Below, one piece after another: positions 8,487 through 51,795 of a stretch of DNA of 64,000 nt. Made by a program: the position numbers and the translations under genes. How positions within the stretch are numbered: the first letter of the stretch is position 1; every line of letters begins with the position of its first letter. The notes under the pieces are model-generated. The model did not search any database and had not been told where the DNA came from. It saw only the letters and a list, made by a program, of their open reading frames with translations. Location of the stretch: positions 23,026,465 through 23,090,464 of the forward strand of contig OY754468.1 in assembly GCA_963575645.1 (NCBI GenBank), in the 5' to 3' direction. Origin of the DNA: Xanthostigma xanthostigma. Its lineage: Eukaryota > Arthropoda > Insecta > Raphidioptera > Raphidiidae.

Positions 8487-8875
8487 TAACAAAAAATATA
8501 ATAATAATTCAATACTTTAGCATTTCGGTCCGGATTTGGATCTTCTTCAGAATTGAGCTAAAAAAATACAATTTTTTATAATATCAAATTTTTAATAAGT
8601 ATAGTCATGGATATATGTGTAAGTACCTAAAAAGAATGAAAAAATTCATTAAAAACAAAATATTATTTTATTAGTAAAACTATTATAATATATACCTACA
8701 ATTGTTTGCTATTATTTTTTCAATATTTAGATATACAAAAAAAACTTAAAGCGATTTTTATTATAAACTAATTATTAATTAATTTTTGTATTTTTTTTAC
8801 TCAATTCTGAAGAAGTTCCAAATCCGGACCGAAACGTGAATGTATTGAATTATTATTATATTTTTTATTAATATA
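8487..8875. mobile_element. Penelope-like short repeat with two opposed hammerhead-like motifs
   Basis: An imperfect palindrome: the left motif (8523-8550, minus) and right motif (8807-8838, plus) both read CTGAAGA, a stem II of TCC..GGA type and GAAA. To the right follow CTGAAAAATTGGTCGATAAT and TTATTGAAGAGTTCTAATC, the same tail as the elements in copy 2 introns. The left end is less clear. Confidence 0.5.
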
Positions 8876-9321
8876 GGTAATTGTCTGAAAAATTGGTCGA
8901 TAATTTCATTTATTGAAGAGTTCTAATCAGACGTTAATCAAAGATTTGATTATAATTTCATGTTGACAGTCATGTTAAGTTGACAGTAATATGTATCGAC
9001 ATACAGTTAATAGAATGTTTTTAATTGGTTTTTAGAACTGTCGCCTTCGAAGGTCTTGTCTCATTTGATCAGAATCTAGTTTCGAGAAGAGTCTACTTTT
9101 TCAGCCCTAAAAAGCCATTTAAATAGAATTTACATTTATTTTGTCAGTCAAGCCTAAACGGTCCAACAGGAGGGAGTACAAGATTTAGAATTATTGGCAA
9201 AAGAGCCTCGTATAAGTTATTGGCTACGTTCACGATATAGATATTTCTTTGGACGAAATTATAGGTGAATTAAAAATATTATAGCATTTTCATAGTTACG
9301 CCGTTTAGTAGCGTAAATAAA

Positions 9322-9667
9322 TCTTAATATATAAAATTCTCGTGTCACAGTTTTCGTTGCCATACTCCTCCGAAACGGCTTGACCGATTTTGATGAAATT
9401 TTTTGTGCTTATCCGGTATCTATGAGAATCGGCCAACATCTATTTTTCATCCCCCTAAATGTTAGGGGTAGTCCACCCCTAAATTTTTTTTCTTCCTTCC
9501 CCATTCGTTCTTTTGCACCGGGCACGACGGCGCAGCCGGAGTGCTCGACATACACACATATACGTCCATGTATATTTTAAAATAAATAAAATAGATAGAT
9601 AGATGTTCCAATTAAATTGTTTTATTATTTCACTTTATACGTAGCGAAGCACGTACAGGGCCGCTAG
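9322..9667 (+). mobile_element. Helitron-like non-autonomous repeat
   Basis: Starts TCTTAATATATAAAATTC and ends GGGCCGCTAG followed by T, as expected of Helitron ends (5' TC, 3' CTRR). Interior contains CTTGACCGATTTTGATGAAA, a phrase common in insect dispersed repeats. No helicase frame. Confidence 0.4.
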
Positions 9668-11586
9668 TATTAAAATATAAATGTAAATAGCGATTTATTT
9701 GTGGAAAATACACACAAAAAACAATGGAAACCCTTGTGGCTTAGGATTGATCAAAGGTACATTACTGTAGAAAATTATTAGATAACCCGTGATGTTAACT
9801 CGAATTAAATTGTGTCAAAAATTAACTTAAAACCATGAAGACAGAGTGAGGTTATCGATAATACTAACGGCATGTAAAATGTAAAGTATTTATGGTTTAA
9901 ACTTCTGTCACCAGATGTCATATCGTTTTATGTCAAATCCTAATATCAGAAAGTTTAAATTTTATATTTCTGATAGAACAAAATACACTACAAAGATAAT
10001 CTGGTCCCTTTGAAAATCCACTAAAAAAATTACAAGAGAAATAAATCTATACGGCATCGTTTAGATAGAATCGTAATTGCTATAATATAGACCTCAACGG
10101 CCTGCTTATTTATTTAACAATAAAAAGCACTCTCCCACATGCTCGCATTACAGTTGCAATGGCCAGAAAAACTATCTTCATAAACAGTTTTAGCAACGGA
10201 AGAATGAAAAAGCGAAAGCAGTCAGCGACTAAACTCGCGTAATAATATATTTATCACAAAATACAACCGCTATCATTTTTAGTAAAGTGGTGCCGGCAGC
10301 TTGGGTTACACGCTCCCCACAAAGGGATCCCCATGTGTCGTCTACTGCCCTCTATACTTTCCACCTCCTGCAAGCCGGCGCCTCAGGCACCCAAATCTAC
10401 TTTCCGACTGAATTTCGTTCGTTCACGTAAATCGTTCGAAACACTAATCGTAATAAAATGATTCCACTTTACTCTTAAATAGTTAAGTTTGTTTCGTCGT
10501 TGTACCATGACCTATTTTACGGATATTGGACTATTTATGTTTTACTTCCTATAGTAAACTCACAATTTTTCCGCTTATTCAAATTCAAATATTTATTGCC
10601 AAAGGAAAATTACATTTCGTATGACTTGTCAAGTACAAAAGCTAATAATCAATATTTAAAATCATTTACTGAATATAAACAAAGAGAGCATAGTCGACTT
10701 TTTATTTGTGATTTAAATTTGGAATACGGCAGTGAAGTCACCTGTACTAGCAGTGTATTATACATTCTCAACGGTCAAAGATTAAAAGAACTTTAAAATC
10801 ATCAAGTGTTCGCGTTTACAAAGAAATCATAGTTAAACGTACTATTAATTATACGAAATTAGTGCGTGTGCTGTTATTATTTTTAGTGTTTCGTGTATAC
10901 GAAACATGAAATCAGTTCGGTGTCCGTCCGTCACAGACGATTTTCTTTGAAACTATTCGACGTAAAAATTTTTAATTTGGCACAGAGATAGAGTATGGTA
11001 GCCCAATCACAGACGTGAAGAAAAAAAAATTAAATTTTGATTCTGGGGATTAATTTATGGGAATGAAATGAGAAATGAAAACAAAACTGTCTGTCCGTCT
11101 GTCACAGCCTATTTTCTCCGAATCTACTGACCAGTGATTCCCAAAGTGGGCGTTACCGCCTGGTGGACGCTGCAGCGATTTGGGGGGGATGAATTCTGAG
11201 TTCAATAAATAGTTTCATTTAGTTTCAAACTTCAATGTTTCTAATTTACAAAAAGGTAGAAACATTAATACATACCTATATCTTTCTGTTTAATTTATAT
11301 TAAAATTAAAAATAAAAATAATTTCCAGGGAGTGCTGAGTAATATCTTTTCTGAAAAAGAGGCGGTAGGCAAAATAAGTTTTGGAACCACTGAGTTAGAT
11401 GATCCAATCACGGACGTATAGCGTAAATAAACGAATTCGGATTTAATTTTGGGAGGCATATTAGAAAATAAAAAAAAAATATATTAATCAATTACATCAT
11501 GTGACATGTCAAATGAAATACAAACATACTTTTCTTTATATTTGTTTCATTATCCGTTTCAATAGTAATATAATAAAATCGTATAG
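9668..11586. other. No gene recognised; GC-richer inverted repeat near 10287-10384
   Basis: The frame 10500-10796 shows no family likeness. At 10287-10384 an imperfect inverted pair (GTGCCGGCAGCTTG and CAAGCCGGCGCC) sits in an unusually GC-rich island whose origin I cannot tell. Confidence 0.35.
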
Positions 11587-11766
11587 GAAGTTGTAATTAT
11601 TATTAGTAAAATAATAAGTTTTGTGATTTTTTATGACTTCTTCAGCAACTTGGTATTAAAACGACAATTTAATTTTAACACTAAGTTGCTGAAGAGGTCA
11701 TAATAAATGACGAAACGTTCAATTTATTAAGTTTTAATTCATTTTACTAATAATTCCAACTTTCTA
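11587..11766. mobile_element. Inverted repeat with hammerhead-like motif
   Basis: Arms around TTTTACTAATAATTCCAACTT frame a motif at 11689-11719: CTGAAGA, then GTCAT/ATGAC pairing, then GAAACGTT. The flanking AAGTTG and CAATTT can also pair (one G-U). Stem II here differs completely in sequence from the other copies but keeps pairing. Confidence 0.5.
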
Positions 11767-12169
11767 CAATTTTATTACAATATATTTTTATAATTTTGGT
11801 ATGCATAGTTTAAAAGATGTTAAAGAAAATATACGAAAATCGAGCATTCCTCCCTTATTTCTAAAATTACTCAGCCTAAAATTAAAAAAAAAAATAGGAA
11901 GTATAGGGTCTCACACACAGTTTACGGGAAAACCTAACCAAGAATCTTCGAAGTTCTCACAGAAATGGAGAGGGTCCACGCGAGTTCGGCTCGCACTTGA
12001 CCGTTTTTTTTAATTTCATGGTTTCTTCGATTACTTTGTGAGTTTCTATTCTAAATATCCAAACAAAAATTTCTTTGTGTTGACACTGTTTTATAACAAT
12101 GTGAGTCGTGTCGTTGTTTTCCATCATAGCAATAATACTACGTGATGTCAGTAGCAAAGTGGAACTAGG

Positions 12170-14876: not shown

Positions 14877-14964
14877 TACTATGTTTTATAAGAAAATTCA
14901 GTTTTGTTTTCATAGTGTATGACACTATAGGCGTTTCTTCAATCTAGGTAAGTTGAAATATAGT

Positions 14965-15800
14965 CAGAATTGCCCCAGGATTCCTACGATTTGGACTACA
15001 AATATATTTGAAAGGCTAAGAGCAAAAGTGCCGTATTTTCAACTCGCTGGCAAGAGTGACGTAGAAATATGTTCGAGCGCAAAAATGCCACGGAAAAATG
15101 TTTCGGGCAAAATAATTGACGTTAAAAAAATCTCAAATTGAATTCTGTTAGAAACTAATTACTAATAATTTTTTTTATATTTTTTAGCTCGATTCTGAAG
15201 AAGACGCGAATCCGAAATGAATCGTCAATTATTTGAATTATAATTATATAATTTTTGTTAATATATAGGTAGTGTCTGAAAAATTAGTTGATAATTTTAT
15301 TTATTGAAGACGGTAGTCAAAGATTTGAATAGATATTTTTGATTAGTATACCGAAAATAACTGTTTAAAAATATGTGAAAATACTTAAGTCGTTTTTACC
15401 CGGAACATTTTTCCAATTCATTTTTGGCCGCGATCCCACACGTGTCAATTTCTACGTCACTTTTTCCGGCGACTTGAAAATACGCCACTTTTGCTCTCAG
15501 TCTGTTAAATATATTTGAGATCCAAATCGTAGGAGTCCAGGAGCAATTCTGACGATATTATAACTTAATCTAATAGATAATTACCCATTCAAATCTTTTT
15601 CAATATTTATATTTTAAAAAAATCTATCACGAATTGCATTAAAAATAAATAGAAACTAATTATTAATTATTTTTTTATATTTTTAGATCCGTTCTGAAGA
15701 AGATCCAAATAAGGATCGAAACGTTAATGTATTATTAATAATTTTTGTTAATATATTGTCTGAAAAATTGGTCGATAATTTTATTTATTGAAGGATAATT
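14965..15800. mobile_element. Large inverted repeat with hammerhead-like units in and after its loop
   Basis: The arms 14965-15110 and 15395-15555 are imperfect reverse complements (AAATATATTTGA, GACGTAGAAAT, AAAAATG blocks). The loop carries a degenerate motif at 15195-15221; a better one lies beyond the right arm at 15694-15725 (CTGAAGA, GATCC/GGATC, GAAACGTT). Both motifs are followed by the Penelope-like tail CTGAAAAATT.GT.GATAAT. Confidence 0.5.
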
Positions 15801-16895
15801 ACGCATGTATTCGGGTATTGACATAATGTTTAATTTGATAACAGATTTGATTTAGGTTTTTTCTTCAGTACAAGGGACAAATATTTGACGTTAAAAGTTC
15901 AAAGAGAATTACCACAAATTAATAACTTTGTTGAACGAATTATTTCAAGTATGTTTGTAATTAACTTTTAATTAAAACACGATGCAGGTATGTGGTACAC
16001 ATTGTTACATTTCACCTACCCTATATACGGTGTGAGGTGCATCCTAATGTTAGCACGGGTTTATTTTAGAGAGGCGCGAGAGTACAGAATGTGAACGGGT
16101 TAAAATGTGCAGACACACCACATGATCACAGTCATAGAGTTTCTTTATATGCAAATACAGGGTTAGAATGTTCTATGAGCAGGATGGAAATACAGAATTA
16201 TCCCATTTAACATATAGTGTAATCAAATTATGAATGTTAATGAAGATAAAGCATTTATTTGCTCGAGTGGTCATTCTATTATTCTCGACAACTCAAATAA
16301 TGTCAACCATGTTATATGAATTTACGGTTATTTCTGAATCTGGCTAAATCAGATCAGAGATTAATTTACTGTTGCTAATTCCTGTATAAAGACGACACAA
16401 AAAACACATACGCGTAACAAAAATATATAAAATTTAATAAAACTATTAGTGTTACCAGACCCTGTCCCTTAAAAAGCGGTAGTACCACCTAAATAAACCG
16501 GATAGATTAAGAGAAAAAAAACGGTAGATTCAAAAAGTTTAGAAAAAACATTACGTTTAGTACTTGCACAAAATCATTGCTTATTAGTCAGTTTTGACTT
16601 ACTACCAAAATATTGATCAGTATGCGGAGTTAACATTACAATAAACTCGCTATATTAAACCAAAACATTAAACAGGATAAATGTCCACGAATATTAGAGT
16701 ATAACAGTATTAAATGAATTATGTTGACTTATGCTGGGTTGCAGAAAGGATTGCAAAAAATTTGATTTCACAATGACCTTAGATTGTGATTATTTAATTA
16801 CAGTTACCATACATCAGGAGTACTCTAATGTATTCAAATTGCCAGTCATCTAGAACATTAGATTGTACTCTCACAAAAACAAATGAATGCCTATA
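15801..16895. other. No gene recognised
   Basis: AT-rich sequence without coding character or defined repeats. Confidence 0.35.
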
Positions 16896-17080
16896 TAGAA
16901 AAAAAATAAGTTCAAAAACTAAAACCCGACTACTGGAAGTATGAAACAAGAAAATATTCTCATCTGAGGATAGCCGTGATTATATGCCACTTACCTTAAG
17001 AAAACATTACATTTTAACAGTATAGTAATAAGCGATCATAAGCTCTAGAGTAAAGTGCATCACCCTATACATCTAGAGAG
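16896..17080 (+). mobile_element. Half of a fold-back MITE also present at 44536-44950
   Basis: Shares ACTAAAACCCGACTACTG, ACAAGAAAATATTCTCATC and GAGGATAGCCGTG with the element in intron 2 of copy 2; here only one arm is recognisable. Confidence 0.5.
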
Positions 17081-28757: not shown

Positions 28758-29199
28758 TGTTGGTTTGAGATTCGATCTCTTAGATTATTAAAAATAAAAA
28801 CTCAACAGAGAACACTAAAAACACGTCTGTACTGTAACGCATCCAAACATTAATGATCTAATAAATAAATAATAATAATAATAAATATACGTCAGCAGTT
28901 TCCAATAGTAAATTTAGATTTAAATAAAAAAACAATTCAATTTTTTTTGGATCTAGTATAGAATACAGGAATTATTCACTGTTACCACTATCAATAAACA
29001 CACTGTATATTTTTCACAATTTTGAATACTGTTTTATCCCATTAATCGTGATTTAAAAATAAAAGTTAAATAGTTTATTAAACAAAGCAAACATGATTTT
29101 AGTATGTATCTACTAATCAAACGACCTTCCCAGATAAGAAAGGTAATTTTTATTGATTTTGATGAAAATAATTATTAATCTATATAATAATGTAATCAT

Positions 29200-29630: not shown

Positions 29631-32600
29631 ATGAAGGTAAGTCAGGATAACAATTAAAAGTTATTTATCGTTAATAAATTTTGTAAAATTATATTTTCAG
29701 CTACAAATTTTGATATTCGTCGTTTTATTTTTCTGCAATGCGAGAACTTCTCCGATAGAACTATACGACAGTTGGGTCGACAATGGTGAAGACACGTCTT
29801 CGATCCCATGGCCAGTTTTAAAAAAGATGCATTTACACAGACCTCCTCCTGTGGAAGTCAAAGCTATACCGAAAACTCTTGCAACGAAATACATTGATCA
29901 AAAATTAGATAATTTTGATCCTTTAAATACTGCCACGTGGAAAATGGTAATTAAAATAATCAAAACTTAATTCACGCTTCTAAAAATATTTACAACGTTC
30001 TAGTGTTAATGTAATTTAGTAGGTACATTTTGTATTCATTATTTCCGCAATATTTAATTTATTGAAGTTATTTAGAAGTAATTTCCAGATTTAACTAACT
30101 CGTTGTGTTTCAATTATACATGATTTATTTTTGTAATAATTATTCAGTAAAAAAGGGTGCACCTTGACGACCTTTCAGCCCCTATAATTAATGACTAAGC
30201 AAGGGGTACATTTCTCTGTTGTGTTGTGAACGAAATTTTCGGAGTAAGGGTCGCGATGCATTGCGATGATTCTACATATTTGAAATTAATTTCTCATCTG
30301 TTTAGAGATATATGAGCAACGACCAATACTACAAACCTGGCGGTCCAATTTTCGTAATGATTGGAGGTGAATGGACAATCAGTTCTGGTTATTTGATAAC
30401 TGGTCAAATGGCCAAAGCTGCAAAACAGAACAACGGTTATATGTTTTATACGGAGCATCGCTATTACGGAGACAGTAGGCCGACAGAGTACGTTTAAAAA
30501 AATGAAATTATATTTAAACAGTAAATTTTTTACTCGACCGCGCAACAGCAAAAACAGGGTTATTTTTTAATATGTGGAATTCTTTTATACCCTCGAAGCG
30601 TCCCAACGGATTTAATACTGAATTTTAATAAAAAAATTGGTTGTCTGTAAAGTCGGTTTACGGACGATAGTTTTACGTGATAACGTATTCCGCTCGAATA
30701 TCATATTTAATAATCACGCACAGGGTCAGGCGGAACGTTACACTTTTTCGTGCATGCAGCCGGTGTTTCATCTTTTTATATTAACGCGATTCATCAATTT
30801 ATAAGACGTTATCACGTCAAAAACTTCAAAAATGTTTATAATGATATATTTTTTAAAAGAGGCAGTTATACAGTCAGAACTGACGTACACAATTTTTTTG
30901 TGCTTTCTAGCAATCTGTCTGTAGAAAACATGAAATATTTGACAACAGATCAAGCGCTTGCCGATTTAGCTTATTTCATTCAACAGAAAAAACTCGAACT
31001 GAATGCAACCAAAGTCATTGTTTATGGTGGATCGTATGCCGGTAATTTGGCTGCGTGGGTAAGAATTAAATATCCCCATTTGGTTCAGGGGGCAATATCT
31101 TCAAGTGGACCTGTTGAGGCCGAAGCTGATTTTAAAGGTATATTAAATAAAAAAGATTCATAATCAACATTTTCTGGAAAGTTTTTGTCTTCAGCAAAGA
31201 TTGTTTTTTCTGACTTGTAGTTTCGTTACGTCACAAGAACGTAACGTTTAAATATACAAATACGCAATTAAAATTTGCTATTAAGGCCGCTATACACGAG
31301 CTTTTTTGCCGTTAGATTCCTTGCTAGATTTAACTGTTAGTTTTCAAGTGCTGGTTTTTATGTGTTGGCTTCACACGATGCATGTATTGAAGTTTGCTTT
31401 GTAGATGGGTTTGGTGCGTGTGCAGTGATGATTTGAATGTTAACAAAAGTGAACGTTTATTGTCTCTTAACAGAACACACACTATGGTGTTATGACACAG
31501 TGTTTGTTTGTGGGCGTTTGTCCATGTCGTCCCTGTGACAAGACGCTGTTTTCTGATTGGTAATTGCTCAAAACAATCAGACGAAGATGCGAAAAAAATA
31601 GCCTCAGTTTTAATTTCGAAATCTATCTTGTGAATCGCAGGCGAGCCCGCAATGATGTCATTCCCGTCTTCGTAATCTGCACGGCAGTCCCAGCAGTGTA
31701 TCTAGCGACAAATCTAGCCTCGTGTGCAGCTGCCTTTATATTAAAAAATACCAGTTGTTGACATTATAAAGTAATATAAGAAAAAAATATTATTCAAAAA
31801 ATGTTACTGTTGGGACTCAAATCCGAATCTTCCACTATCGCGGCTATAGTGGAAGAGATCAACAACAGGCTGTTTCATAATATGTGTACATAATTATGCA
31901 AAAACATATTTCCATTTTAAATATATTACAAAATTATTTTATTAATTTTTTTCAACAAGAGTACATGGAAGTTGTCAACGATGCGTTGGCCACAGTTGAC
32001 CAAAAATGTGTTGACAACATTCGAAATGCAACGGGAGAAATCGAAAAACTTTTACTTACCGACGAAGGAACTGAAAAAGTCAGCAAACTTTTCAAGTAAG
32101 CACTTTTAAATTTATTTAATTAATTTGTTATTGAAATTGAGACAATAGAAATTTTATGTGTCTAAAATAGAAAAACATAGATCTTGCTCAGTGAAACTGC
32201 AATATATATATAATATATATAATCTACCGAGTAATCTAAAAGTTACTACTTCTATAAATATTGAAAATCAATTTTTTGTCTATTATGATAGTAAACCGCT
32301 AATTCGTCAATTTTATTCTATGAACTGTGACGTTACACCAATGAAAGCTGTGTTCTGTGTCACGTGATATTCTAATATTTGTAACGCACAAAGTTATAAA
32401 AACCAAGCGAGTTTGAGCAGGTCAGAAACGTATAGGCTTCAAAATAAAGTGAACAACTTTCTATTCAAAGATATATAGGACGACCAATTTTTTGGGGAAC
32501 CGGACGTTATGCCATTTTATTTCTATTTCATTTCCTTTATATAGGAAAAGTACCTACCTACTTTCTAGTTTAAATAAGTACTGCTCCTATATATAATGGA

Positions 32601-35600
32601 AATGATATATAAATAAGGTAACAAACAAAACAAATTCAAAGTAATAAAAATAATACACTAGGTACCCAGAAATATATACAAGAAATGTTTATCTAAGCGC
32701 TCTATAAAATTACATCCGAACTCAATGATTTATGTCAGGCGACCGAACACCGTATGATTGTGTCTGATCTGTGAACTGCAGGCGCGGTCTATTTATACCT
32801 ATGCGTGGGATACCCATTCTAGTTTTTCCTCGAATGTTCGAAAACCTTCTTTACCAGCTTCCACAAAAAGTCTTCTACCTGCTTCTAACAATGCGCGCAG
32901 GGTCGATGGCGTGCGTCACAATACCGGATACGAGTCATTTAATTAATGATCTCCTAATGTTTTTTATGTAGCATATGCAAAAAATTGGATCGGCATGATC
33001 AGGCTACAGTCTCCACTTTTATGCAAACGATTGCAGAGACTTACGCCGGAATTGTCCAGTATGCCCACACTGGTGATCTCGCAAAAGCTTGCAAACCTAT
33101 GTTGGAAGGCTCCGGTGAACCTATTGAAAAGTTGGCCAAATTTATATCCGGCTCTCAGTGCATAGATCCGTCATATAGCAATGTGGTTTCGTATTTTAAT
33201 CAAACCAGTTGGTCTTCATCGGCTGGAAGTGGAAGTGAGTAAAACTATAAATTTAAGTCCGTTTTGCAACTGAATTTTGTTAAATAAAAACCGATCTAAT
33301 TCCATCTTTATTTCAGTACGCCAATGGATTTATCAGACATGTACCGAATATGGTTATTACCAAACATCCGCATCAAAAAAACAACCATTTGGTACAAAAT
33401 TTCCTTTGGAATATTCTACAAAAATGTGTACTGATGTTTATGGCAAAGAGTAAGTATTGTATACTACAGTAATTCATGTATCTAGGTTGTAAATCATTAT
33501 ATTACATAGGAACAGGGACATTGTGTTAAAACGGGCGATTGGGGAGTTTTAACAGTCATACGAGTCATAAAAGCAATAGAGATACATACTAAATTTTTTG
33601 CCCGTACCTCTTATAAAATTGCTAATTTTCATTTATGTATTTAAAGTGACGGAAATGATCATGTTGTCAGCAATGAAACTTCCTGGTATAACTCCTCTCG
33701 AACTTAGTGATGTTTTGAAAACAGTTTCATGTAGAAAGTAAGTAAAAAAATTGGAAAAAACTGGAAAAATCGATTATTTTTAATGATATTTTGACAATTT
33801 AAGAGGCTAAATACCCCCAGAACTTTTCATCCCTCTAGTCTCTCAGAAAAAATTTAAAGACTTGTGATAATGCCGGCCCTGTTCCATTTATTTTATAGCA
33901 TGCCTAGTTATTTAATAATTTATTGATAATTATGCAATGGTCGCTCGAAACACATAACAATATAAATTACAAAAAAAATACAAATATATAAAAAAGAAAA
34001 AGATAATTTAATATAACGAAATATAATTCATATAGATTCAATCTTGAAAATTGTCCTAAGATAAAATAAACTAAAATAGAAAATTCTTATATTATTTAAA
34101 TCAACACCAAAATTTAAAACCGTATATAAAAATCAAAATTAATAGCTTAAGCAACGAATAATTCTAGATGGAAAAGTCGAAAGCAGAACATTTGACTTAG
34201 GAACTTTGTTTGGACTAGTTAGGAGATAAACATACTAAAAGTCCTTACCCCTCCGAGGTACGCCCGAAGGGGGGGAGCACAAAGAAGGTCCCGTTTTTTG
34301 GTATTTTGCTTTCATCTCGAAAACGGTACGTCGTACGAAATTTTGTTGGAATACATAATGAAAGCTGATAAAATTCTCTACAACTTTAGTTTTCACACTT
34401 TTTATCTATCTCCAATCTTTGCCTAGCTATGAGCTCCGAAAAATGGTCGATTTTCAAAAATGTGTTAAATTCTCTGTAGCACATTGTAACAATACGAATT
34501 TGTCAAAATCATTTCGTATCGCTCATCCACACTATTAAAAACACCCACACACTATTAAAAAATAACATAAGCTGGGATTACCTCCACACAGGGCCCTCTT
34601 TCCCACTGGGCACTCTGGCACGTGCCCAGGGCCCCGCGATCGATAGGGACCCCCTAGTTTAATGGTATACTAAGTACCTAAACTGTTTTAAACAAAAATC
34701 ATCAGTGAACTATTTTTCATATACTTATTTTTTTTGTGTCCTTCATGTTAAAATTGGGAACGTTATCCTTTTAAATATATGCATTTTATATCACATTCCT
34801 CGACTTAGAATCTAGAACCTTGTTTATCTATTTTCTTTGTCTATTCTAACAAAATAGTGCTCTGTTAAGGTCATAGGGGCCCCATAATCCTAATGTGCCC
34901 AGGGCCTTCAATAGGTTAAAGCTTATGTTACTTTTTAATAGTGTGTGGGTGTTTTAATAGTTTGGATGAGCGATACGAAATGATTTTGACAAATTCGTAT
35001 TGTTACAATGTGCTACAGAGAATTTAACACATTTTTGAAAATCGACCATTTTTCGGAGCTCATAGCTAGGCAAAGATTGGAGATAGATAAAAAGTGTGAA
35101 AGCTAAAGTTGTAGAGAATTTTATCAGCTTTCATTATGTATTACAACAAAATTTCGTACGACGTACCTTTTTCGAGATGAAAGCAAAAAACCAAAAAACG
35201 GGACCTTCTTTGTGCTCCCCCCCTTCGGGCGTACCTCAGAGGGGCAAGGACTTTTAGTATGTTTATCTCCTAACTAGTCCAAACAAAGTTCCTAAGTCAA
35301 ATGTTCTGCTTTCGACTTTTCCATCTAGATGCCCCTTATGAGCACTCATTGACTAAACTATAACAGCAACGCACTAAATCAATATCGTTAATCTAATAAT
35401 AATTACATAATTAAATTAATGAGAAATAAATTATTTTTTGGAAATTTTTTATAAAAGCTTTCTTTTAAAATAAAACCGAAAGATTTGCAAAATTTGAAGT
35501 TCTCATACACGCATCCAATAAAATCAAAGAGCTTCAAAAAACGTTGCAGGTTTAAATAATACTTTTAATTCCCCCAAAATAACAAAGAATGATTAAAATA

Positions 35601-39989: not shown

Positions 39990-40500
39990 AAGTCATGATA
40001 TATACCTAATAATAATTTCTTTTGAAGGAGATTTATTTGGTAGAGGAACAAGTGAAAATAAGTTTTACCAGTGTATCGCTTGTGGCCAACGTTTCGAAAA
40101 ATATATTTTCATCATCAGGGCCTATGAACATGTAGAATATTCGTTACATATATTATTTATACATTATATTATTATATGAACATGTATAATATTCGTTACA
40201 TATATTATACATATAATATATGTAACGAATATTCTACATGTTCATAGGCCCTGATGATGAAAATATATTTTTCGAAACGTTGGCCACAAGCGATACACTG
40301 GTAAAGCTTATTTCGTTACATATATTATATTATGTATAATATATGTAACGAATATTATACATGTTCATAGGCCCTGATGATGAAAATATATTTTTCGAAA
40401 CGTTGGCCACAAGCGATACACTGGTAAAGCTTATTTTCACTTGTTCTTCTACCAAATAAATCTCCTTCAATACATATTTTGGAACAAAACTTCTACTAAC
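39990..40500. mobile_element. Penelope-like inverted cluster with three hammerhead-like motifs
   Basis: Outer arms (39990-40070 and 40430-40500) are reverse complements (GGAGATTTATTTGGTAGA). Inside, motifs lie at 40088-40118 (minus), 40251-40281 and 40374-40404 (plus): CTGATGA, GAAAA..TTTTC pairing, GAAACGTT, each flanked by GGCC on both sides. TTCGTTACATATATTAT repeats join them. Confidence 0.55.
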
Positions 40501-40525
40501 AATAATTTCTTTATAAAAAGTAATG

Positions 40526-41532: not shown

Positions 41533-41592
41533 AGACCACACTTTTAAAATTAAAAATTAATCGTAAGTGGTCATTGTATCTAAAACCTCAAC

Positions 41593-44500
41593 ATGAAGGT
41601 AAGTCAGGATAACAATGAAAAGTTATTTAGCGTTAATAAATGTAAAATTATATTTTCAGCTACAAATTTTGATATTTGTCGTTTTATTTTTCTACAATGT
41701 GAAAACGTCTCCGATAGAATTATACGACAGTTGGACCGAAAATGGTGAAGACACGTCTTCGATCCCATGGCCAGTTTTAAAAAAGATGCATTTACACAGG
41801 CCTCCTCCTGTGGAAGTCAAAGCGATACCGAAAACTCTTGCAACGAAATACATTGATCAAAAATTAGATAATTTTGATCCTTTAAATACTGCCACGTGGA
41901 AAATGGTAATTAAATAAATCAAAACTAAGTTTTCGCTTCTAAAGATATTTCAAACAATTGATAATTTGACAATAAATAAAATTATCGACCAATTTTTCAG
42001 ACAATATATTAACAAAAAAATATATAATTAATACATTAACGTTTCAATCCGGATTTGAACCTTCTTCAGAACTGATCTAAAAAATTTAAAAATAATTAAT
42101 ATTTAAAATCTAATCAGCTTTTTATAGAATCTTTCAAAAATTATTAATGATTATCAAAATAATGAAAAAATAATAATTTTTGAAAGATTCTATAAAAAGC
42201 TAATTAGATTTTAAATATTAATTACTTTTATATTTTTTAGATCAGTTCTGAAGAAGGTCCAAATCCGGATTGAAACGTTAATGTATTAATTATATATTTT
42301 TTTGTTAATATATTGTCTGAAAAATTGGTCGATAATTTTATTTATTGAAGAGTTCAAATCAGACGTTAATCAAAGATTTGAATTGATAATTTGATTTTCT
42401 ATTTAAGTAAGTACCTATGCATTTTCTATTCATTATTTCCACAATATTTTTTGATGTTATTGAGAAATAACTTTTATAGTACTAACAGACGCTCGAACTT
42501 GGTTCGAAGCGGACAACGGATCTGGTCCGCTCCGTACCAAATCTGTTCGTCTGTACAGAAGTCTGCGTGTCCGCCCGGTTCGATGAAATGCACATCGTAC
42601 TTGGTCCGGTCCGGTACAATATCCGTGCGTGTGTATAGCAGTACGACGGACTTGATACATATAACCGTATAACGACGTCATTGTAATTCAAAACGTTGTG
42701 CACAATGCCGGATTTAGAGGTCTGGAGGCCTCGGGGCAACAAAGGAGTGGAGGCCCCCTGGCCCCAAATTATTTTCCAAATAAAATGGACAATTTTTTTC
42801 AGTCGATTTTTCCAATAAATAATTTATTGTGAAACCAAGTATAGATTCTTTTATTATTTAACAAACATATAAATATAATCAGAAACAAGAATTATCTAAA
42901 AATTAAATTTTAGCATTAACGAACAGAACTTTCCGAGCTGAAATCCAGTTCCCGAAGTAAATCACTTTCAATGCTCAGGAAATTTGATTTTTTTTTCCAA
43001 AGTCTCTATTGTGGGGGTCCCTCTTTTGTGGTGGCCCCGGGGCTGTAGCCCCGGTTGCCCTCCCCTAAATACGGCTCTGGTTGTGCAACATGACAGAAAT
43101 TTTGACAGAACGCGAAGTTCTTGGTGGAGTATTGGTATTATAAAAAGATTTCTCATGTTTGTGGGATCTATCAGATAAGTTATATTGTAACAGAGAAGCG
43201 CGTAACAACGCTCTAGAAATTCTTCGGGAGTGTTATTCAAAATATAATCTTCGCTATCAAGCGATTTTATTAACTTCATATGACTAAATTCATCGCGATC
43301 TTTCAAATAGAATTTTGCCCACTCCTTTCTTTTCTTCCTTGTTGTTTGTGGGGGCATTAACGTTGCCGCTAGAACAATCGCAATTTTCGCGCGCTTAATC
43401 ATAGGCATGATTACGTAACTGTGTACACAAGGAGACTGACAGATCCGGTCGTCTGTTGCAAGCAGCGGACTTGATCCGCCGTACCATGTCCGTTGTCGGA
43501 CCGGACCAAGTTCGAGCGTCTGTTAGTACTATTAGATTTAATTAACTCGTGTTTACAGTGAACACTTCTTTAAAAACGAGGTCAAACTCGTTTCCCTATG
43601 TAACGGATTTTCTTACGAAGTTGTAGTATTAGTAACCCTGGTGCCCGACATGGACAACTCAGTCCAGAGTAACTCCGATCAAAACAACTCGCTCAAAATA
43701 ACTTAGGTTAAAATAACTTTTGTCCAAATCGACTCGGCGGAAAAAGAACTCGGCTCAAAACAACTCCAGGCAAAAACAACTTCGGACGAAATAACCCCGG
43801 TTACAATGACTTGTTTATGAGTGAATTTGAGACTACAACTTAAAACTCACATTTTCATGAAGATTGAAAACCATCGCTTTTTTTGATAAAGGGGTATGCG
43901 AATTGTCTCGCAGTGAAACGGGAAGGGGCAAATGTGGAGTTTTTAACCGACGAAAAACAAAAACGGAGGAGGTTCTCAATTCGACGCGTATATTTTTTTT
44001 CTTTATTTATTTATTTTTTTTTTATTTATGTATGACCACGCATAACTTTTTACAGAGTAGTCCGATTTTGATAATTATTTTTTTTAAAAAAACAATTCCG
44101 GGGTGAACGATAAACGGGAATGCGAATTGTAATTTAAATGAAAATAATTTGAAATTCGATTGAATGTAATATTGTGTAATGGGTTGAAATTATTATTGAG
44201 GTGTTTGTGCTCTGAGTTGTTTCATCTGGAGATGTTTTGCCCGCAGTCGTTTTGGTACTGAGTTGTTTTGGTCCTAAGTCGTTTCGTCCAGAGTTGTTTT
44301 GTTCAGAGTTGTAGAAAGCAAAGTTGTTTCGTCCGAGTTATTATGACCTAGCACCAGTAACCCTATATAAGCAATGATTCTTTGTATGCATTAGTAGTTT
44401 AGTGGTAGAGTGCTAGCCTACCACGCGTCCGGATTGGGTTCAATTACCGTCAGGTGCGCGCAACAAATTGTTGTTTTTATTTTTTTATTATTTTTAAGTA

Positions 44501-47500
44501 GGTATACTATAGGTATATACAATTTTCGACTAATTTATCAGAAACTAAAACCCGACTACTGAAAAGTACGAAACAAGAAAATATTCTCATCTGAGGATAG
44601 CCGTGGTCGTATGGCACCTACCTTAACAAAACAATACATTTTAACAATAGTAAGCGTTCATAAGCTTTAGAGTAAAAGTGCATCACGCTATACATCTAGA
44701 GGACGCCATATGACCATATATATGAGGTGGCATACGACCACGGCTAACGTTAGATAAGAATATTTTCTTCAATAAATAAAATTATCGACCAATTTTTCAG
44801 ACAATATATTAACAAACAATATAAAATTAATACATTTTATTTATTGAAGAGTTCTAATCAGACGTTAATCAAAGATTAGAATATTTTCTTGTTTCATACT
44901 ATTCAGTAGTCGGGTTTTAGTTTTTGAACTTATTTTTTTTATTATATAGGTACGGTTTATTTTTGTAATAATTATTCAATAAAAAAATGCGTGCACCTTG
45001 CCAACCTTTTAGCCTCTAGTCATTATACATAATGGCTAAGCTGGGACACATTTCTTTGTTTTGTTGTGAGCGAAAATCTCGGAGTAAGAGGTTGCGTTGT
45101 ATTGCGAGACAACACAACAGAGAAATGTGTTTCCAGCTTTAATCGGCCTTGAATAAATACAATTCTATAATTAATATCTCATTTGTTTAGAGATATATGA
45201 GCAACGACCAATACTATAAACCTGGCGGTCCCATTTTCATAATGATTGGAGGTGAATGGACAATCATTCCTGGCCATTTGATAACTGGTCAAATGGTCAA
45301 AGCTGCACAACAAAACAACGGTTATATGTTTTATCCGGAGCACCGCTATTACGGAGACAGTAGGCCGACAGAGTACGTTTAAAAACAAAAAATTATATCT
45401 AAACAGTTAATTTTTTATTCCACTGCGGAACAGCAAAAACAGGGTTTTATTTTTTACACCGTATCTAGGTATGTGGTATTCTTTATACCCTCGAAGCATC
45501 CCAATGGCTGCATGGATTTTAATCAGCGAGGTGTCTAGTTTGTTTAATATTGAATTTTAAAAACCATAAAAAATGTAATGATATATATATTTTTTAAAAG
45601 ACGCAGTGATACAGTCAGAACTGACGTACACATTTTTTGTGCTTTTTAGCAATCTGTCTGTAGAAAACATGAAATATTTGACAACAGACCAAGCGCTTGC
45701 TGATTTAGCTTATTTCATTCAACAGAAAAAGCTCGAACTGAACGCTACCAAAGTTATTGTTTATGGTGGATCCTACGCCGGTAATTTGGCTGCGTGGGTA
45801 AGAATTAAATATCCCCATTTGGTTCAGGGAGCAATAGCCTCAAGTGCACCTGTTGAGGCTAAAGCTGATTATAAAGGTAAATCAAATCAAAAAGATTCGA
45901 AATCACCTCGTTGTAGAAAGTTTTTGTCTTCAATAAAGATTGTTTTTATTAGAAATAATTTCGTTACGGCACAAGAATGTAACGTTTAAATATATAAATA
46001 CGCAATTAGAATTTGCTGATAAGGCCACTGTACATGAAACTTGTTTTGCGGTTAGATTTAACTATTAATTTTCAAGCGCTGGCTTTTGTGGTGGCTTTTA
46101 TGTGTTGGCTTCATACGATGCGCGTATTGAAGTTTGCTTTGTAAATGGATTTGGTGCGTGCGCAGTGACAATTAAGTTTTAGCAGTGTCTCTATAGCGGC
46201 AAAACTAGCCTCGTGTGCAGCGGCCTTTATATTATAAAACACCCATTGTTGACATTACCAAGTAAAGTAAGAAAAAAATGTTATTCAAAAAATGTCACTG
46301 TCGGGACTCAAAACCGTATCATCCACTATCGCGGGGATAGTGGAAGATGTCAACAACAAGATGTTTCATAATATACATGTATAATGTATATATTATTATG
46401 CAAAAACATATTTCACTTTTTAATACCTATATTAAAAAATGATTTTATTATTTTTTTTCAACAAGAGTTCTTTGAAGTTGTCAACGACGCGTTAGCCACA
46501 GTTGACCAAAAATGTGTTGACAACATTCGAAATGCAACGGGAGAAATCGAAAAACTTTTACTTACCGACGAAGGTGCTGAAAAAGTCAGCAAACTATTCA
46601 AGTAAGCACTTTTATATTTATTTAATTTATTTATTATTGAAATTTAAACAATAGAAATTTTATATTTTAACTATAAAAATAACCTAAACGTAAACAACAA
46701 ATTACTACTGTACAAAACTATTCTGAGACCAATTTTAACTTATGCCTGCCCTGTTTGGAGTTCAATGAGCAATTCAAACTACCAAAATGTGCAACTCCAA
46801 CAAAAAAAGTCCCTCAGAATAGCAACACGCCTTCCTAAACACACCCCAATCACCCTATTGCATAACACCGTTGACATAATGCCAGTCAAAGATTTTGTGC
46901 ATGCCGCAACTTTAAAATTCTTTCTAAAATGCAGTTACAGTAATTCCGAAATTATAATCGCAATCGGTAACTATAACCTTACGAGATGTAATAAGCGCAT
47001 TAAACATATACTGCTCCAAAATTAATGCATCAGTGCATCCTAGAACATCTACATACTTGAGTTTTTTTTACACCTTTTTTCCCATAGGAACAATATAATT
47101 ATGTAAACCTGTTTATTAATGCATGGATTTACTATGCATTATGCAGTTGGTTGATTTAGTACACTGTAATAAATGTTGTAATTTTCTGTTCTTTTACTAT
47201 TCTTTGACAATGAAATTTTATCATTATTATTATTATTTATGTGTATAAAACAGGGAAACATAGATCTTCAAATCTTTGATTAACGTCTGATTAGAACTCT
47301 TCAATAATAGTATATTGTGCGACTAGTGACAGAAGGAGAAGATTCCATGAGCGTAAAACGCACGCGAGTGGAATATTCTCCTTCGATCAATGGTCGCACA
47401 TAATACTTTATTCAACTAGCACGAGTAATATGTAATCGGGGCCCTGATAAAAGAGGGAAAAATAATAAATCACCTAATTTATTGACGTACCCACCGCCCT

Positions 47501-50500
47501 CGATGCACACAAGATGGCCCTGACTTCCGCTGAATTGCGATGCTGTTTTCATATATACAAATCGCTACCGCGTTCCTATTGGTCCAGAAACTATGCAGTA
47601 ATAATTCATTACCGTACAGTTTCGGCTCGCTACCGCGTTCCTATTGGTCCAGAAACTATGCAGTAATACATTATCGTACAGTTTCGGCTCATTATTAGCA
47701 TTCTACGCGGTAACATGCAGTAATTTATTATTTCTCCCGAATTTAGCCGGGCCCCGAAATTATATATTACGCGTGTTGAATAAATAAAATTATCGATAAT
47801 TTTATTTATTGAAAAACATAGATCTTGGTCAGTGAAATAGCAACATATGATTACATACCTATCCGAGTCTACCGAGTAATCGAGTTACTAATCCTATAAT
47901 ATCGAAAATCAGTTTTTTGTTTATTATGATAGTAAACCGCTAACGTCGCAAGTTTATTCCATGAACTGTGACGTCACAAAGCTATAAAAACCACCCGAGT
48001 TTGAGGACGTCAGAAACGTATGTCTCAAAATAAAGTGAACAACATTTTATTTGAAGATACGTAGGGCCAGCGTTTTTTAGGGGACCGAAAGTTATGCCTT
48101 TTTCACGATCCCGCCCACTCCAGCCTGCCAACCATTGTATTGTTCTTTTAAACAGGGCTTAAATTTTCCAAATACCCTTGAACTGACCTTTACGGCTGTC
48201 CATGGGGTTTGAGTGTTACGGGCTTTCCTACTATAAGAATTTTTATGTATTCTGCTATAAATACATACCGTACACGAGTCATTTAATTAATGATATTCTA
48301 ATGTCTTTTATATAGCATATGCAAAAAATTGGATCGGCATGATCAGGCTACAGTCTCTACTTTTATGCAATCGATCGCAATGACTTACGCCGGAATTGTC
48401 CAGTATTCCCAAACTGGTGATCTCGCAAAAGCTTGCAAACCTATGTTGGAAGGCTCCGGTGAACCTATTGAAAAGTTGGCCAAATTTATATCCGGTTCTC
48501 AGTGCATAGATCCGTCATATAGCAATGTGGTTTCGTTTTTTAATCAAACTAGTTGGTCTTCCTCGGCTGCAGGTCAATGTGAGTAAAAATACAGGGTAGC
48601 GCAGAGGAAACGCATGTTTTTCACCTAAGCATAACATTTTATATTTTCAAGATACTGTTGTTTTAATTACAGGTAAATAAAGTAATAATAATGCACTTTT
48701 AAATCAATTATGAAAAAAAATGTCAGTCGAGTGTCGCTCTGCTTTGCGGTCGCACATCTCCAACCGCTCTTGAAAATTGTGCATCACATTTAAAATCATT
48801 TCTTGCGATTTCTTGACGAATAGCAATTTTCAGTTCTTTTTGTGGGGTTAACTTAAGTCTTAAAGTGTACGCTAATAAGCCCCGTACGTTACAGGAACTG
48901 AAAATTGCTATTCGTCAAGAAATCGCAAGAGTACCACATGAAATGATTTTAAGTGTGATGCACAATTTTCAAGAGCGGTTGGAGATGTGCGACCGCGGAG
49001 CAGGGCGACACTCGACTGACATTATTTTCCATAATTGATTTAAAAGTGCATTATTATTACTTCATTTACCTGTAATTAAAACAACAGTATCTTGAAAATA
49101 TAAAATGTTATGCTTAGGTGAAAAACATGCGTTTCCTCTGCGCCACCCTGTACAAATTGACGTTCATTTTTTAACTAAATTTTGGTAAATAAAAACCGAT
49201 CTAAATCCATCTTTATTTCAGTACGCCAATGGATTTATCAGACATGTACCGAATATGGTTATTACCAAACATCCACATCAAAAAAACAACCATTTGGTAC
49301 AAAATTTCCTTTAGAATATTCTACAAAAATGTGTACTGATGTTTACGGCAAAGAGTAAGTATTGCATATAATAGTAATTTATGTATCTAGATCGTATTGA
49401 ATGATATTGCATACGAACTGTGGAATTGTGTTAAACCGGGCTATTATCGAGTTATATAACAGTCATACTAGTCATAACAGCATTACAATAGAGATACATA
49501 CTACATTTTTTGCTCGTACCTTCTATAAAATACCTGATTTTCATTAATTCATGAGTATTTATTCAAAGAAAAAAAAGTCATGAACCATAGGCGTACTCAG
49601 GGAGGGCAGCTGCCCCCTCTGGATTTTGGGAGACGTCATAAACCGTTTTGCTAAAGATTCTCGAAAACTTCTTTTAAAATAGATGTCTAATAATTTAGGT
49701 GTAGGGCAAAACAAGCGCGGGGATCCGGCTTAAGACGTTTATGATTTGCCCACACCCTCTTGGATCAAAAGCTGGGTACACTCATGCATGGAAATGATCA
49801 GATTGTCAGAAATGAACACATCCTTGAAAATATCTTCTCGATCTTAGTGATATTTTGATGAAACAGTTTTATCTAGTAAATAAGTAAAGTAAAAAACCGG
49901 AAAAATTGATTATTTTTAATGTTTTTACAGTTTTAAAGGGTAAATTCCAAATCTTCCTCCTTGCTAGAAATGTTCAGGTTTTAGAACTTCTTTTCCCTCT
50001 AGCCTCTCAGAAAAAATGTAGGCTAAATAATCTTCTTCATTTCTCCAAATGATCAAAAGGTGATTAAAATAGGTGAAGGAGAGCCTCTTCTGAAAACGGC
50101 GGGTGATGGGGGAAAACAGTGGTCGCATTTGGTATCAGAAGGTCATTTTACATAAGAATCAACAGGAATGGCTCGAAAAAAATATTTTTGGCCGATCAGT
50201 GTAGTGTTTTGTTACTTTTCAGAGTGAATAGCAACGTCCTTGAACAAGGCGTAAATAGAACAAATTTGATATATGGAGGACGCCATCCAGATGTTACCAA
50301 CGTAGCGTTTATTCATGGGTCAATTGATCCCTGGCATGCTCTTGGAATTCTCGAAGATTTGTCCGATAAGACTCCGTCTTTTTTCGTTAAAGGTAAGCAA
50401 ATCAAATTTGATCTGTTTTTACGATTTGAAATATTTTCTAATCTTAAATTTCTTTAGGCACATCGCATTGCGCTGACTTGTCAGATAACACGGACAACAA

Positions 50501-50561: not shown

Positions 50562-51283
50562 AGTTTGAAGAAATTTTAAATAAAACACTTCGAAACATCG
50601 AAAGTCAAAACTTTAATATGATTGTATTTATTTAAAAGTTTATAATTTGTGCAACATTTTTAATTAAAAAAAATATAAAAATATAAAAAGATCACCTTAC
50701 GTTTAGACAACTGAGTACGTAGGTTTATACCTTCCTAGTTAGCGCTAAGTGTGAAACTAATTTAGACCCACAGATAATTTTTCAGATATGCGAGAAAATA
50801 TTTAAAAAAAGGCGCAATTGTGTGAACCCTACGTTTCGCTCCGTCGTTCTATCAGCGCTAATAATGTATATTTCACAATATGCTATGTACATAGTCCGAG
50901 CGGCCGCGCGACGTAAAGATTGATTCCGATATTATATAGAGCATGAAAATTTTAGAAAAGTTAGAACACATTTTAACATTCTTTAATCTTCAGCAGTCCT
51001 CCTGAGCTATACTTCCAATCAGCGCGATAATATTTTCATTCATTTTTGAAACGAGCTTTAGAAATTATCACGCAAGATTTCACAAAGTTTATACGAACTA
51101 TAATACTAAATTAAGTGAATCCAGATGTTTTTGATTCGAGTTTTTCTCCAGGTTTCGTGAAGCATCTGTTGTACATCAGTTTTAATGTTTCCTGAAAGCA
51201 TTCAATTTTTTTAATATTTAACATAGCATTTCTACTGCACCGGGTTAAGAGGGACACTGCCTGTAGGCTGTAGTACATCAAGT
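50562..51283 (+). repeat. 3' flank of tandem unit 2
   Basis: Collinear with the 3' flanks of copies 1 and 3 up to about 51280, then diverges. No gene; the short minus-strand frame 51371-51111 is not conserved in frame between units. Confidence 0.6.
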
Positions 51284-51530
51284 ATTTATTTTTATCCACG
51301 ACGGAACGGAGAAGGTATATGCGTTTAGGGTGAGAAATTGTTTGTTTGTGCGTGCACTCAAATGTTGCCATTTATCTCGAAAACGGTTCGATCGATTCAG
51401 ATGCGGGTTTCTGTAAGGCTTTATAATTCATCTGCGATGATTCTTAATAATAATAATAAATAATAAAGTTTATTTATTCCGTTGACGTTAATCAAAGATT
51501 TGAAGCTTTACCAATGTTTCGCTAGTGACC

Positions 51531-51795
51531 AACGTTTCGAAAAATTTATTTTCATCTTCAGGGCCTCAAGCTGGTCAAGTGGTGGTAAATTGTTCTAACA
51601 GTGTACATGATCATAATATTATGAGTTAGTATAATTTTAAACATCTTATTATAAAAAATTAATTAAAAAATGTATTCAATTTTTGTAAAAGTGTCACGCG
51701 GTGAAAAAATTAAAATATTTATCTAAGAATTTAATATAACCAAATTTGAGAACTTTCTGTGTACTTTTATGTGATACCGATCAAATGTGTGGAAC
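51531..51795 (-). repeat. Repeat with hammerhead-like motif, related to 23388-23640
   Basis: The motif 51531-51561 (minus) reads CTGAAGA, GAAAA..TTTTC, GAAACGTT with flanking GGCC/GGTC that can still pair through G-U. It continues into the block shared with 23388. Confidence 0.5.

What the first reader, a model, noticed from the sequence alone, without database searches (positions are those of the whole stretch)
8521..51561. Recurrent hammerhead-like RNA motif with a covarying stem II
At least ten sites share the order CTGANGA + one extra base + a 4-5 bp hairpin + GAAACGTT: 8523-8550(-), 8807-8838, 11689-11719, 15694-15725, 40088-40118(-), 40251-40281, 40374-40404, 42038-42069(-), 42248-42279, 51531-51561(-). 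The hairpin changes sequence between families (GATCC/GGATC, GTCAT/ATGAC, GAAAA/TTTTC) but keeps pairing while the boxes stay constant. The bases outside the boxes pair as well in several (GGCC/GGCC, GGCC/GGTC, AAGTTG/CAATTT). CTGANGA and GAAA are the hammerhead core boxes; GAAAC-GTT would give a two-pair stem III that could form only between two RNAs (ACGT is self-complementary). Hammerheads are known from Penelope-like elements. The extra base before stem II and, in some copies, a weak stem I argue for caution.
Basis: partly seen in the sequence, partly recalled or inferred. Interest (0 to 1): 0.72.

Follow-up and report, generated by a model that had tools for sequence, protein, structure and literature searches.

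The report
Dimer-type hammerheads in paired Penelope retrotransposons
The repeated motif is a real hammerhead-type RNA carried by Penelope-like jumping genes; its shape suggests that two RNA copies must join to cut themselves, and the way the copies sit in the genome suggests that each insertion was written from two RNA ends at once.

Summary
Eight of the ten listed sites match CTGANGA...GAAACGTT exactly (0 in 100 shuffles); two are decayed. The same genome holds 13,555 exact matches against 20 for the reversed pattern. Stems I and II covary strongly across families, so this is a hammerhead. Two features recur: one extra base before stem II, and a loopless, self-complementary stem III word (ACGU, ACUAGU, ACAUGU, ACAUAUGU, AUGUACAU) that should pair only between two ribozymes. 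The carriers are Penelope-like elements (RVT_1 + GIY-YIG ORFs). Of 20 RT-selected 3' regions, 14 have intact boxes, 3 have one box letter changed, 3 have none. In the window the motifs lie in short 5'-truncated insertions, several of them head-to-head pairs; four window insertions have 12-14 bp target duplications. Pairs carry one long and one short 3' end (19 of the 34 pairs could be classified on both arms, all 19 long+short), and either arm may reach further 5'. That fits two separate reverse-transcription starts on RNAs of one source better than self-priming. Dimer hammerheads in Penelope elements are already published (Lunse 2017; not held, known from its title, others' words and recall). 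Cleavage was not tested.

The parts
40011..40022 (.). left target-site duplication AATAATTTCTTT of the 40-kb insertion
40014..40152 (-). family A Penelope 3' arm (inverted); HHR 40088-40118
40088..40118 (-). hammerhead: stem I GGCC/GGCC, extra U, stem II GAAAA/UUUUC, stem III ACGU, cleavage expected after GUU
40217..40313 (+). family A arm, truncated; HHR 40251-40281
40251..40281 (+). hammerhead, family A
40340..40497 (+). family A arm with long 3' end (tail); HHR 40374-40404
40374..40404 (+). hammerhead, family A; same boxes, stem II and 3' side as in the tandem PLE array on contig C3 (L096, L099; one base differs in stem I)
40501..40512 (.). right target-site duplication AATAATTTCTTT
41956..41969 (.). 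left target-site duplication AATTGATAATTTGA
41970..42146 (-). family B arm, short 3' end; HHR 42038-42069
42038..42069 (-). hammerhead, family B (GGUUC/GGAUU)
42171..42384 (+). family B arm, long 3' end; HHR 42248-42279; its last bases overlap the right target duplication
42248..42279 (+). hammerhead, family B (GGUCC/GGAUU)
42381..42394 (.). right target-site duplication AATTGATAATTTGA
8482..8590 (-). family B arm with decayed hammerhead 8519-8550
8769..8949 (+). family B arm, long 3' end, with hammerhead 8807-8838 that has G at the cleavage position
11689..11719 (+). hammerhead, family C (AAGUUG/CAAUUU; GUCAU/AUGAC); partial inverted partner at about 11618-11655
15142..15330 (+). family B arm, long 3' end, decayed hammerhead 15195-15226
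15640..15793 (+). family B arm, short 3' end, hammerhead 15694-15725 (GAUCC/GGAUC)
44757..44890 (.). family B head-to-head insertion without a hammerhead: short arm 44766-44836(-), whose 5' end is exactly the expected cleavage-product end, and long arm 44830-44882(+); 13-bp target duplication; two uninterrupted relatives of the site in the window
47256..47826 (.). family B head-to-head insertion without a hammerhead: long arm 47267-47323(-), short arm 47758-47813(+); target duplication AAACATAGATCTT; uninterrupted related site at 32153-32337
51503..51600 (-). family A2 arm with hammerhead 51531-51561 (GGCC/GGUC; GAAAA/UUUUC)

Best explanation
The sites are minimal type I hammerhead motifs in the 3' (pseudo-LTR) part of several Penelope-like retrotransposon families, which the window holds as short 5'-truncated insertions. 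Stem I and stem II are ordinary. Stem III has no loop and is a self-complementary word of 4-8 nt, so one molecule cannot close it; two motifs pair their stem III words (and stem I in trans) into a double hammerhead and cut after the base that follows the word (U, C or A). In tandem element copies one transcript carries such motifs one unit (about 3,043 bp) apart and could cut itself into unit RNAs. The insertions are head-to-head because both nicked target strands prime reverse transcription, one starting at the outer (long) and one at the inner (short) site near the 3' end, on RNAs of the same source; the two cDNAs meet head-on and staggered nicks give the target duplication (11-17 bp in the clear cases). 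Shown: motif, covariation, self-complementarity, carriers, two 3' ends, target duplications, uninterrupted sites. Inferred: cutting, dimer formation, two-primer insertion.
For: Motif. Covariation: stem I 86.1% of cells paired against 43.9 +/- 5.2 shuffled, score 1.098 against 0.248, 0 of 500 shuffles, 18 sequences not picked for stem I; stem II 98.2% against 54.4, score 1.121 against 0.199 (rows were picked for having a stem II). Stem III: five different self-complementary words, the central dinucleotide included; 94 of 95 one-extra-base hits. Loci picked by GIY-YIG match alone (28 loci, two duplicates dropped): 26 hits in 20 loci, all with one extra base and a self-complementary word. Regions picked by RT match alone (20, chosen by me from 76 to spread over families): 14 with intact boxes (13 with a clean stem II), 3 with one box letter changed, 3 with none; all 17 with boxes have a self-complementary stem III. 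Carriers: RVT_1 and GIY-YIG in one ORF (L039, L045, L048); the arms of L014 are 97% and 100% the 3' part of L029, which holds a GIY-YIG match; the window's families A and B recur behind RT matches (L096; L091, L092, L094); a hammerhead lies between successive tandem ORFs. Insertion: of 23 neighbour pairs under 2 kb among the first 100 listed sites, 22 are (-)(+), 1 is (+)(+), 0 are (+)(-); 34 divergent pairs: 19 long+short, 12 long+unclear, 3 unclear, 0 long+long, 0 short+short; 11 of 25 pairs with a duplication of 11 bp or more, all 11 with one end extended 18-52 nt and the other -9 to 3; uninterrupted sites.
Against: No cleavage data. No Rfam hammerhead model matches. Nearest-neighbour folding does not pick the double hammerhead as best structure in any of 8 families tried, and the head-to-head copy that I folded forms one long hairpin that buries the motif. 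Most arms held here run through the cleavage site, so the RNAs that templated them were uncut there (but most of these loci were fetched because they hold the motif); only 3 exact ends at that site were found for family A2, with no answered control. One tandem PLE lineage and 3 of 20 RT-picked regions show no motif. 14 of 25 pairs showed no duplication of 11 bp or more, and 5 of 9 window elements none of 8 bp or more. [quoted passage not shown]
Confidence: 0.82

Rival explanations
1. The head-to-head structure comes from self-priming: one strand folds back at its 5' end and copies itself, as proposed for rotifer Penelope elements; the hammerhead is as described.
For: Arms of one insertion are more alike than arms of different loci (4.1% against 9.5% in family B, 3.8% against 7.7% in A2), as a copied arm would be. 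The proposal is in PMC3846280 (passages).
Against: In 10 of 19 classified pairs the short arm reaches further 5' than the long arm by more than 5 nt, while the long arm carries 3' sequence that the short arm lacks, so neither can be the template of the other unless sequence was lost later. A clear example outside those 19 is L074: short 2-179, long 141-209. In 5 of 19 the long arm is longer on both sides and in 4 the limits are similar, which self-priming would allow. Strict long+short ends are not predicted.
Confidence: 0.15
2. The motif is a hammerhead fossil kept for RNA pairing or packaging, not for cutting: the self-complementary stem III dimerises two element RNAs and catalysis no longer matters.
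For: Insertion of the anole PLE does not need hammerhead cleavage (PMC11167929); most arms held were templated by RNA uncut at the site (biased sample).
Against: Positions needed for chemistry (CUGANGA, GAAA; role recalled) stay fixed across families with different stems, more than dimerisation alone would ask for; one family has U4 to C.
Confidence: 0.2
3. The paired motifs are terminal inverted repeats of a DNA foldback transposon (MITE) and the hammerhead likeness is coincidental.
For: Palindromic structure and target duplications.
Against: The two ends differ by 18-52 nt in each of the 11 pairs with a clear duplication; arms match the 3' region of RT/GIY-YIG elements; many different families share only the hammerhead boxes and covarying stems.
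Confidence: 0.02

Closest known systems
Penelope-associated small hammerhead variants that cleave as dimers (Lunse, Weinberg, Breaker 2017, RNA Biol 14:1499; Cervera and de la Pena 2014, MBE 31:2941)
   Same: Type I order, minimal or missing stem III, carried by Penelope-like elements, dimer action. Both papers are not held. What others say of them was seen in passages of PMC7761336 and PMC6466107; the latter credits the 2017 paper with the need for a palindromic stem III end and a tandem arrangement. The rest is recalled.
   Different: I could not check whether the constant extra base before stem II, the range of stem III words, or the U4C family are in those papers.
Aedes/newt/ASBVd-type dimeric hammerheads (PMC3088659 Fig. 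S8 legend; Forster 1988, cited there)
   Same: Short palindromic stem III/loop III that can pair between two ribozymes (passages).
   Different: There stem III has a loop that also pairs; here there is no loop at all.
Penelope insertions of Adineta vaga (PMC3846280)
   Same: Head-to-head inverted pseudo-LTRs, optional 31-bp tail on one inverted copy, 8-10 bp target duplications (passages).
   Different: Here one long and one short end in each of the 19 pairs classified, 11-17 bp duplications in the clear cases, and 5' limits that argue against self-priming.
Poseidon of Anolis carolinensis, PAc (PMC11167929)
   Same: Hammerhead at the pLTR, protein cuts and extends both target strands, internal RT starts, tail = stretch between two RT starts (main text section read).
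   Different: In vitro no difference in start site between the strands was seen; here each classified genomic pair uses both sites once.
Metazoan retrozymes (PMC7229834)
   Same: Type I hammerheads in small repeats, genome-wide in the thousands (passages).
   Different: Retrozymes are tandem and non-autonomous with canonical loops; these are truncated, largely head-to-head copies of RT-coding elements.

Membership tests
hammerhead ribozyme (type I) | core boxes CUGANGA and GAAA, H before the cleavage site | tested here: met
   13,555 genome matches against 20; the numbering and box roles are recalled
hammerhead ribozyme (type I) | stem I and stem II at the expected places, supported by covariation | tested here: met
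   unselected check (34 of 43)
hammerhead ribozyme (type I) | stem II directly follows A9 | tested here: not met
   one extra base in 95 of 96 descriptor hits. An extra core nucleotide is published for a viroid hammerhead (title seen; its position recalled)
hammerhead ribozyme (type I) | match to an Rfam hammerhead model | tested here: not met
   Searches (gathering; E up to 5) on the window, 88 (E up to 10) on 7 loci: no hammerhead family
hammerhead ribozyme (type I) | self-cleavage | not testable with these tools
   needs transcripts
dimer-type (double) hammerhead | stem III cannot close in one molecule but pairs between two | tested here: met
   self-complementary word without loop in 94 of 95 one-extra-base hits, the exception a decayed copy in L064, and in all 17 RT-picked regions with boxes
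dimer-type (double) hammerhead | double hammerhead is the favoured fold | tested here: inconclusive
   nested and possible, but not the energy minimum in 8 of 8; the energy model has no core contacts
Penelope-like element | one ORF with RT and C-terminal GIY-YIG | tested here: met
   both domains in L039, L045, L048; RT and GIY-YIG in neighbouring frames in L035; shown for carrier elements in the genome, not for the window's truncated copies
Penelope-like element | tandem/inverted pLTRs, optional tail, target duplication | tested here: met

The most novel reading that the evidence does not exclude
The self-complementary stem III is the element's RNA-dimer signal: two genomic RNAs of one source enter one particle joined at the hammerhead, the protein dimer cuts both target strands, and each RNA is copied from its own start site, so the head-to-head long+short insertion is the footprint of an RNA dimer, much as retroviruses package two RNAs.
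Probability: 0.2. Interest if true: 0.8.

Novelty: new member of a known kind. Interest (0 to 1): 0.5.

Why it matters
How Penelope-like elements insert, and what their hammerheads are for, are stated as open in the papers seen (PMC3846280, PMC7761336, PMC11167929). This genome gives thousands of copies from many families, so two points become countable. One is that insertions use two separate 3' starts, one of each kind, which speaks against self-priming. The other is that the pairing word of stem III changes from family to family but stays self-complementary, as expected if two RNAs must meet. Both are directly testable with the purified-element system that already exists for the anole element.

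Tried and rejected
Chance: rejected. Rfam as a filter: no hammerhead hit; the MIR810, mir-3327 and similar matches at 40.0-40.3 kb and MIR473 in L060 are, as I read them, the palindromes themselves matching hairpin models below their cut-offs. DNA foldback transposon: rejected on unequal ends and RT carriers. Non-autonomous family without a parent: rejected for A and B, which recur behind RT matches; still open for A2 and C, for which no parent was identified. Two templates from different source loci: not supported in family B, where arms of one insertion differ less and mostly by private changes; in A2 the arms also differ less, but the share of private changes (25 of 29) is near that between loci (79%); over both families 15 of 100 arm differences are variants shared with 3 or more other arms. 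Footprint of cleavage in the 5' ends of arms: one window insertion (44.8 kb) begins exactly at the expected cut and L066 within one base, but the genome count for family A2 is only 3 and its controls did not complete, so this stays open. Energy folding of the dimer: not informative. Host species: not determined; the window reads as an animal genome (S28 peptidase fragments, LINE ORFs). On checking, an earlier count of mine (all 95 stem III words self-complementary, read from the shortened list) was wrong by one and was recounted; the odds did not need changing.
Full report
WHAT WAS CHECKED. The pattern CTGANGA-N{8,20}-GAAACGTT occurs 8 times in the window and 0 times in 100 dinucleotide shuffles. 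These are 8 of the 10 listed places; the other two are decayed copies. In the genome that holds the window (623 Mb, 28 contigs; window = C5:23026465-23090464) there are 13,555 exact matches against 20 for the same pattern read backwards.

IS IT A HAMMERHEAD? Taking only the boxes as search key, 34 of 43 distinct sites (in the loci then held) have a stem II of at least 5 bp, provided one extra base is put between CUGANGA and the stem; without it none of the 43 has 4 bp. For covariation I took one representative per family or variant, chosen by me from the list: 22 sequences for stem II (98.2% of cells paired against 54.4 shuffled; score 1.121 against 0.199; sliding by 1-3 columns gives 27-46%), and the 18 of them with the ACGU word for stem I (86.1% against 43.9; score 1.098 against 0.248; 0 of 500 shuffles). 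The rows were picked by a descriptor that asks for stem II and a self-complementary word, so leans towards the structure; stem I was not asked for, so one search is clean in that respect. Families are related elements, and the shuffles do not correct for that.

STEM III. The words found are ACGU in most families, ACUAGU (L039), ACAUGU (L079), ACAUAUGU (L081) and AUGUACAU (the family of L041-L058), followed by U, C or A and then stem I. A scan of 306,829 bases with nothing asked after GAAA gave 96 hits; 95 have exactly one extra base, and 94 of these a self-complementary word; the exception is a copy in L064 with one letter changed, and the 96th hit looks like chance. Many of these loci had been fetched through GAAACGTT, so fairer tests are loci picked by protein. 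Picked by GIY-YIG: 28 loci (L029-L058 less two duplicates), 26 hits in 20 of them, all with one extra base and a self-complementary word; 20 of the 26 carry the 8-nt word of one family. Picked by RT: 20 regions 3' of matches, chosen by me out of the 76 to spread over families; 14 have intact boxes (13 with a clean stem II), 2 copies of one family have CCGAAGA instead of CUGAAGA, 1 has CAAA for GAAA, and 3 have nothing; all 17 with boxes have a self-complementary word. A hairpin would not need its central two bases to be self-complementary, whereas a dimer does. Folding energies alone do not choose the double hammerhead (8 of 8 families).

WHO CARRIES IT. GIY-YIG matches in the genome (37 listed) include long open frames with RVT_1 and GIY-YIG together (L039, L045, L048) or in neighbouring frames (L035). 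Behind the ORFs of L035, L038, L039 and the L041-L058 family the motif lies about 250-500 nt downstream. The window's family A recurs in a tandem array on C3 with units of about 3,043 bp and one hammerhead between successive ORFs; family B recurs behind RT matches in L091, L092 and L094. The arms of the small element in L014 are 97% and 100% the 3' part of L029, which holds a GIY-YIG match. So the window's A and B copies are truncated Penelope-like insertions. For A2 and C no parent was identified. A five-unit tandem lineage on C7 has no recognisable motif.

HOW THEY SIT. Of the first 100 sites listed on contig C1, 23 neighbouring pairs lie within 2 kb: 22 are (-)(+), pointing outward, 1 is (+)(+), none is (+)(-). 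The two arms are not mirror images. Their 3' ends fall into two classes about 35 nt apart, long and short; I set the class limits. In 34 divergent pairs of families A, A2, B and the autonomous family of L041-L058 in held loci: 19 long+short, 12 long+unclear, 3 unclear, no long+long, no short+short. Independently of any family query, 11 of 25 pairs have an exact flanking duplication of 11-17 bp (0.7% of random position pairs do), and in all 11 one end is extended by 18-52 nt and the other by -9 to 3; 3 more have 8-9 bp words, one of them (L017) off this rule, and 11 have none of 8 bp or more, some because the palindrome end was overshot. In the window, 4 of 9 elements examined have 12-14 bp duplications. 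Two of these insertions have relatives of the site elsewhere in the window in which the duplicated word stands once and uninterrupted (47 kb insertion: 32153-32337; 44.8 kb insertion: 16890-16990 and 44538-44619); for the 42 kb insertion a tandem gene copy runs through the place, with a diverged word; for the 40 and 8.5 kb insertions no such relative was found.

MECHANISM OF INSERTION. If one arm were copied from the other (self-priming, proposed in PMC3846280), its 5' limit could not go beyond its template. In 10 of 19 long+short pairs the short arm reaches further 5' than the long arm while the long arm has the extra 3' part; in 5 the long arm is longer on both sides; in 4 they are similar. 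So in about half the pairs neither arm can have templated the other, unless sequence was lost later. Arms of one insertion differ by 4.1% (B, 13 pairs) and 3.8% (A2, 8 pairs), against 9.5% and 7.7% between loci. In B the differences are mostly private (60 of 71, against 48% between loci); in A2 25 of 29, against 79%, which is little different. The simplest reading is that the two templates were RNAs of one source locus or one long RNA. This agrees with the anole element, whose protein cuts and extends both target strands, starts inside the RNA, and whose tail is the stretch between two start sites (PMC11167929). The use of one start of each kind per insertion is not stated in the text I read and is unexplained.

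ROLE OF THE RIBOZYME. The head-to-head copy at 42 kb, if transcribed, folds into one long hairpin (-230.8 kcal/mol, z -44.7), so such copies should not cut themselves. Tandem full-length copies are the natural place for cis dimers. Most arms held run through the cleavage site, so their templates were not cut there, but most of these loci were fetched because they hold the motif. One window insertion (44.8 kb) starts exactly at the expected product end and one other (L066) within a base; a genome count for family A2 found 3 such ends, and the control counts did not complete. Whether cut RNAs are used is therefore open. The bolder reading, that stem III serves to join two RNAs in the particle and that head-to-head insertion is its footprint, is not excluded and not shown.

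COMPARISON. Dimer-acting small hammerheads in Penelope elements are known (Lunse et al. 2017; Cervera and de la Pena 2014: not held; seen only as references and in other authors' words). Palindromic stem III sequences are noted for Aedes (PMC3088659 legend) and, in a review, for the Penelope motifs (PMC6466107). An extra core nucleotide is known from a viroid hammerhead (title; its place after A9 is recalled). I therefore file this as a new member of a known kind. In the listings of my searches of the held library and in the passages read I did not meet a link between the hammerhead dimer and the head-to-head insertion, or the one-long-one-short rule; most subscription papers are not in that library, and most listed papers were not opened.

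Noticed in passing
window about 29.3-36.5, 41.1-51.0 and 54.6-63.4 kb: Three tandem copies of a region with a Peptidase S28 gene fragment (30714-31163, 45582-45989, 57834-58268), in blocks mostly 60-94% alike; useful because they give uninterrupted sites for insertions.
   Followed up: partly
window 25159-28784 (-): A LINE with an endonuclease/RT ORF of 951 aa (Exo_endo_phos and RVT_1 in Pfam) and an upstream ORF of 269 aa without a Pfam match.
   Followed up: partly
L082:1-994 and L083:1-839: A Penelope family with CCGAAGA in place of CUGAAGA (U4 to C) in two separate copies, with stem II, extra base and ACGU intact; a natural core variant to test.
   Followed up: partly
L100, L101 (contig C7, about 24.10 Mb): Five tandem units of a Penelope lineage, 3,097 bp apart (the two spacers read are letter-identical), without any recognisable hammerhead.
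   Followed up: partly
families with extra U, e.g. window 40374-40404: With U as the extra base the motif reads CUGANGAUG, placing an AUG across A9, the extra base and the first base of stem II; in the anole element the ORF is reported to start at stem II. Read by eye, in families A and A2 that AUG opens only 15 codons.
   Followed up: no
window 34163-34540 / 34952-35329 and 48590-48805 / 48937-49152: Long inverted repeats, 98% and 96% alike, not examined.
   Followed up: no
window 40066-40303; L060:382-448: Rfam plant microRNA models (MIR810, MIR473) match the head-to-head palindromes below the curated cut-off; such palindromes could be mistaken for microRNA precursors.
   Followed up: partly
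window 47324-47757; L065:223-478: Stretches of about 250-430 nt that match none of the arm queries lie between the two arms of some insertions; origin unknown.
   Followed up: no
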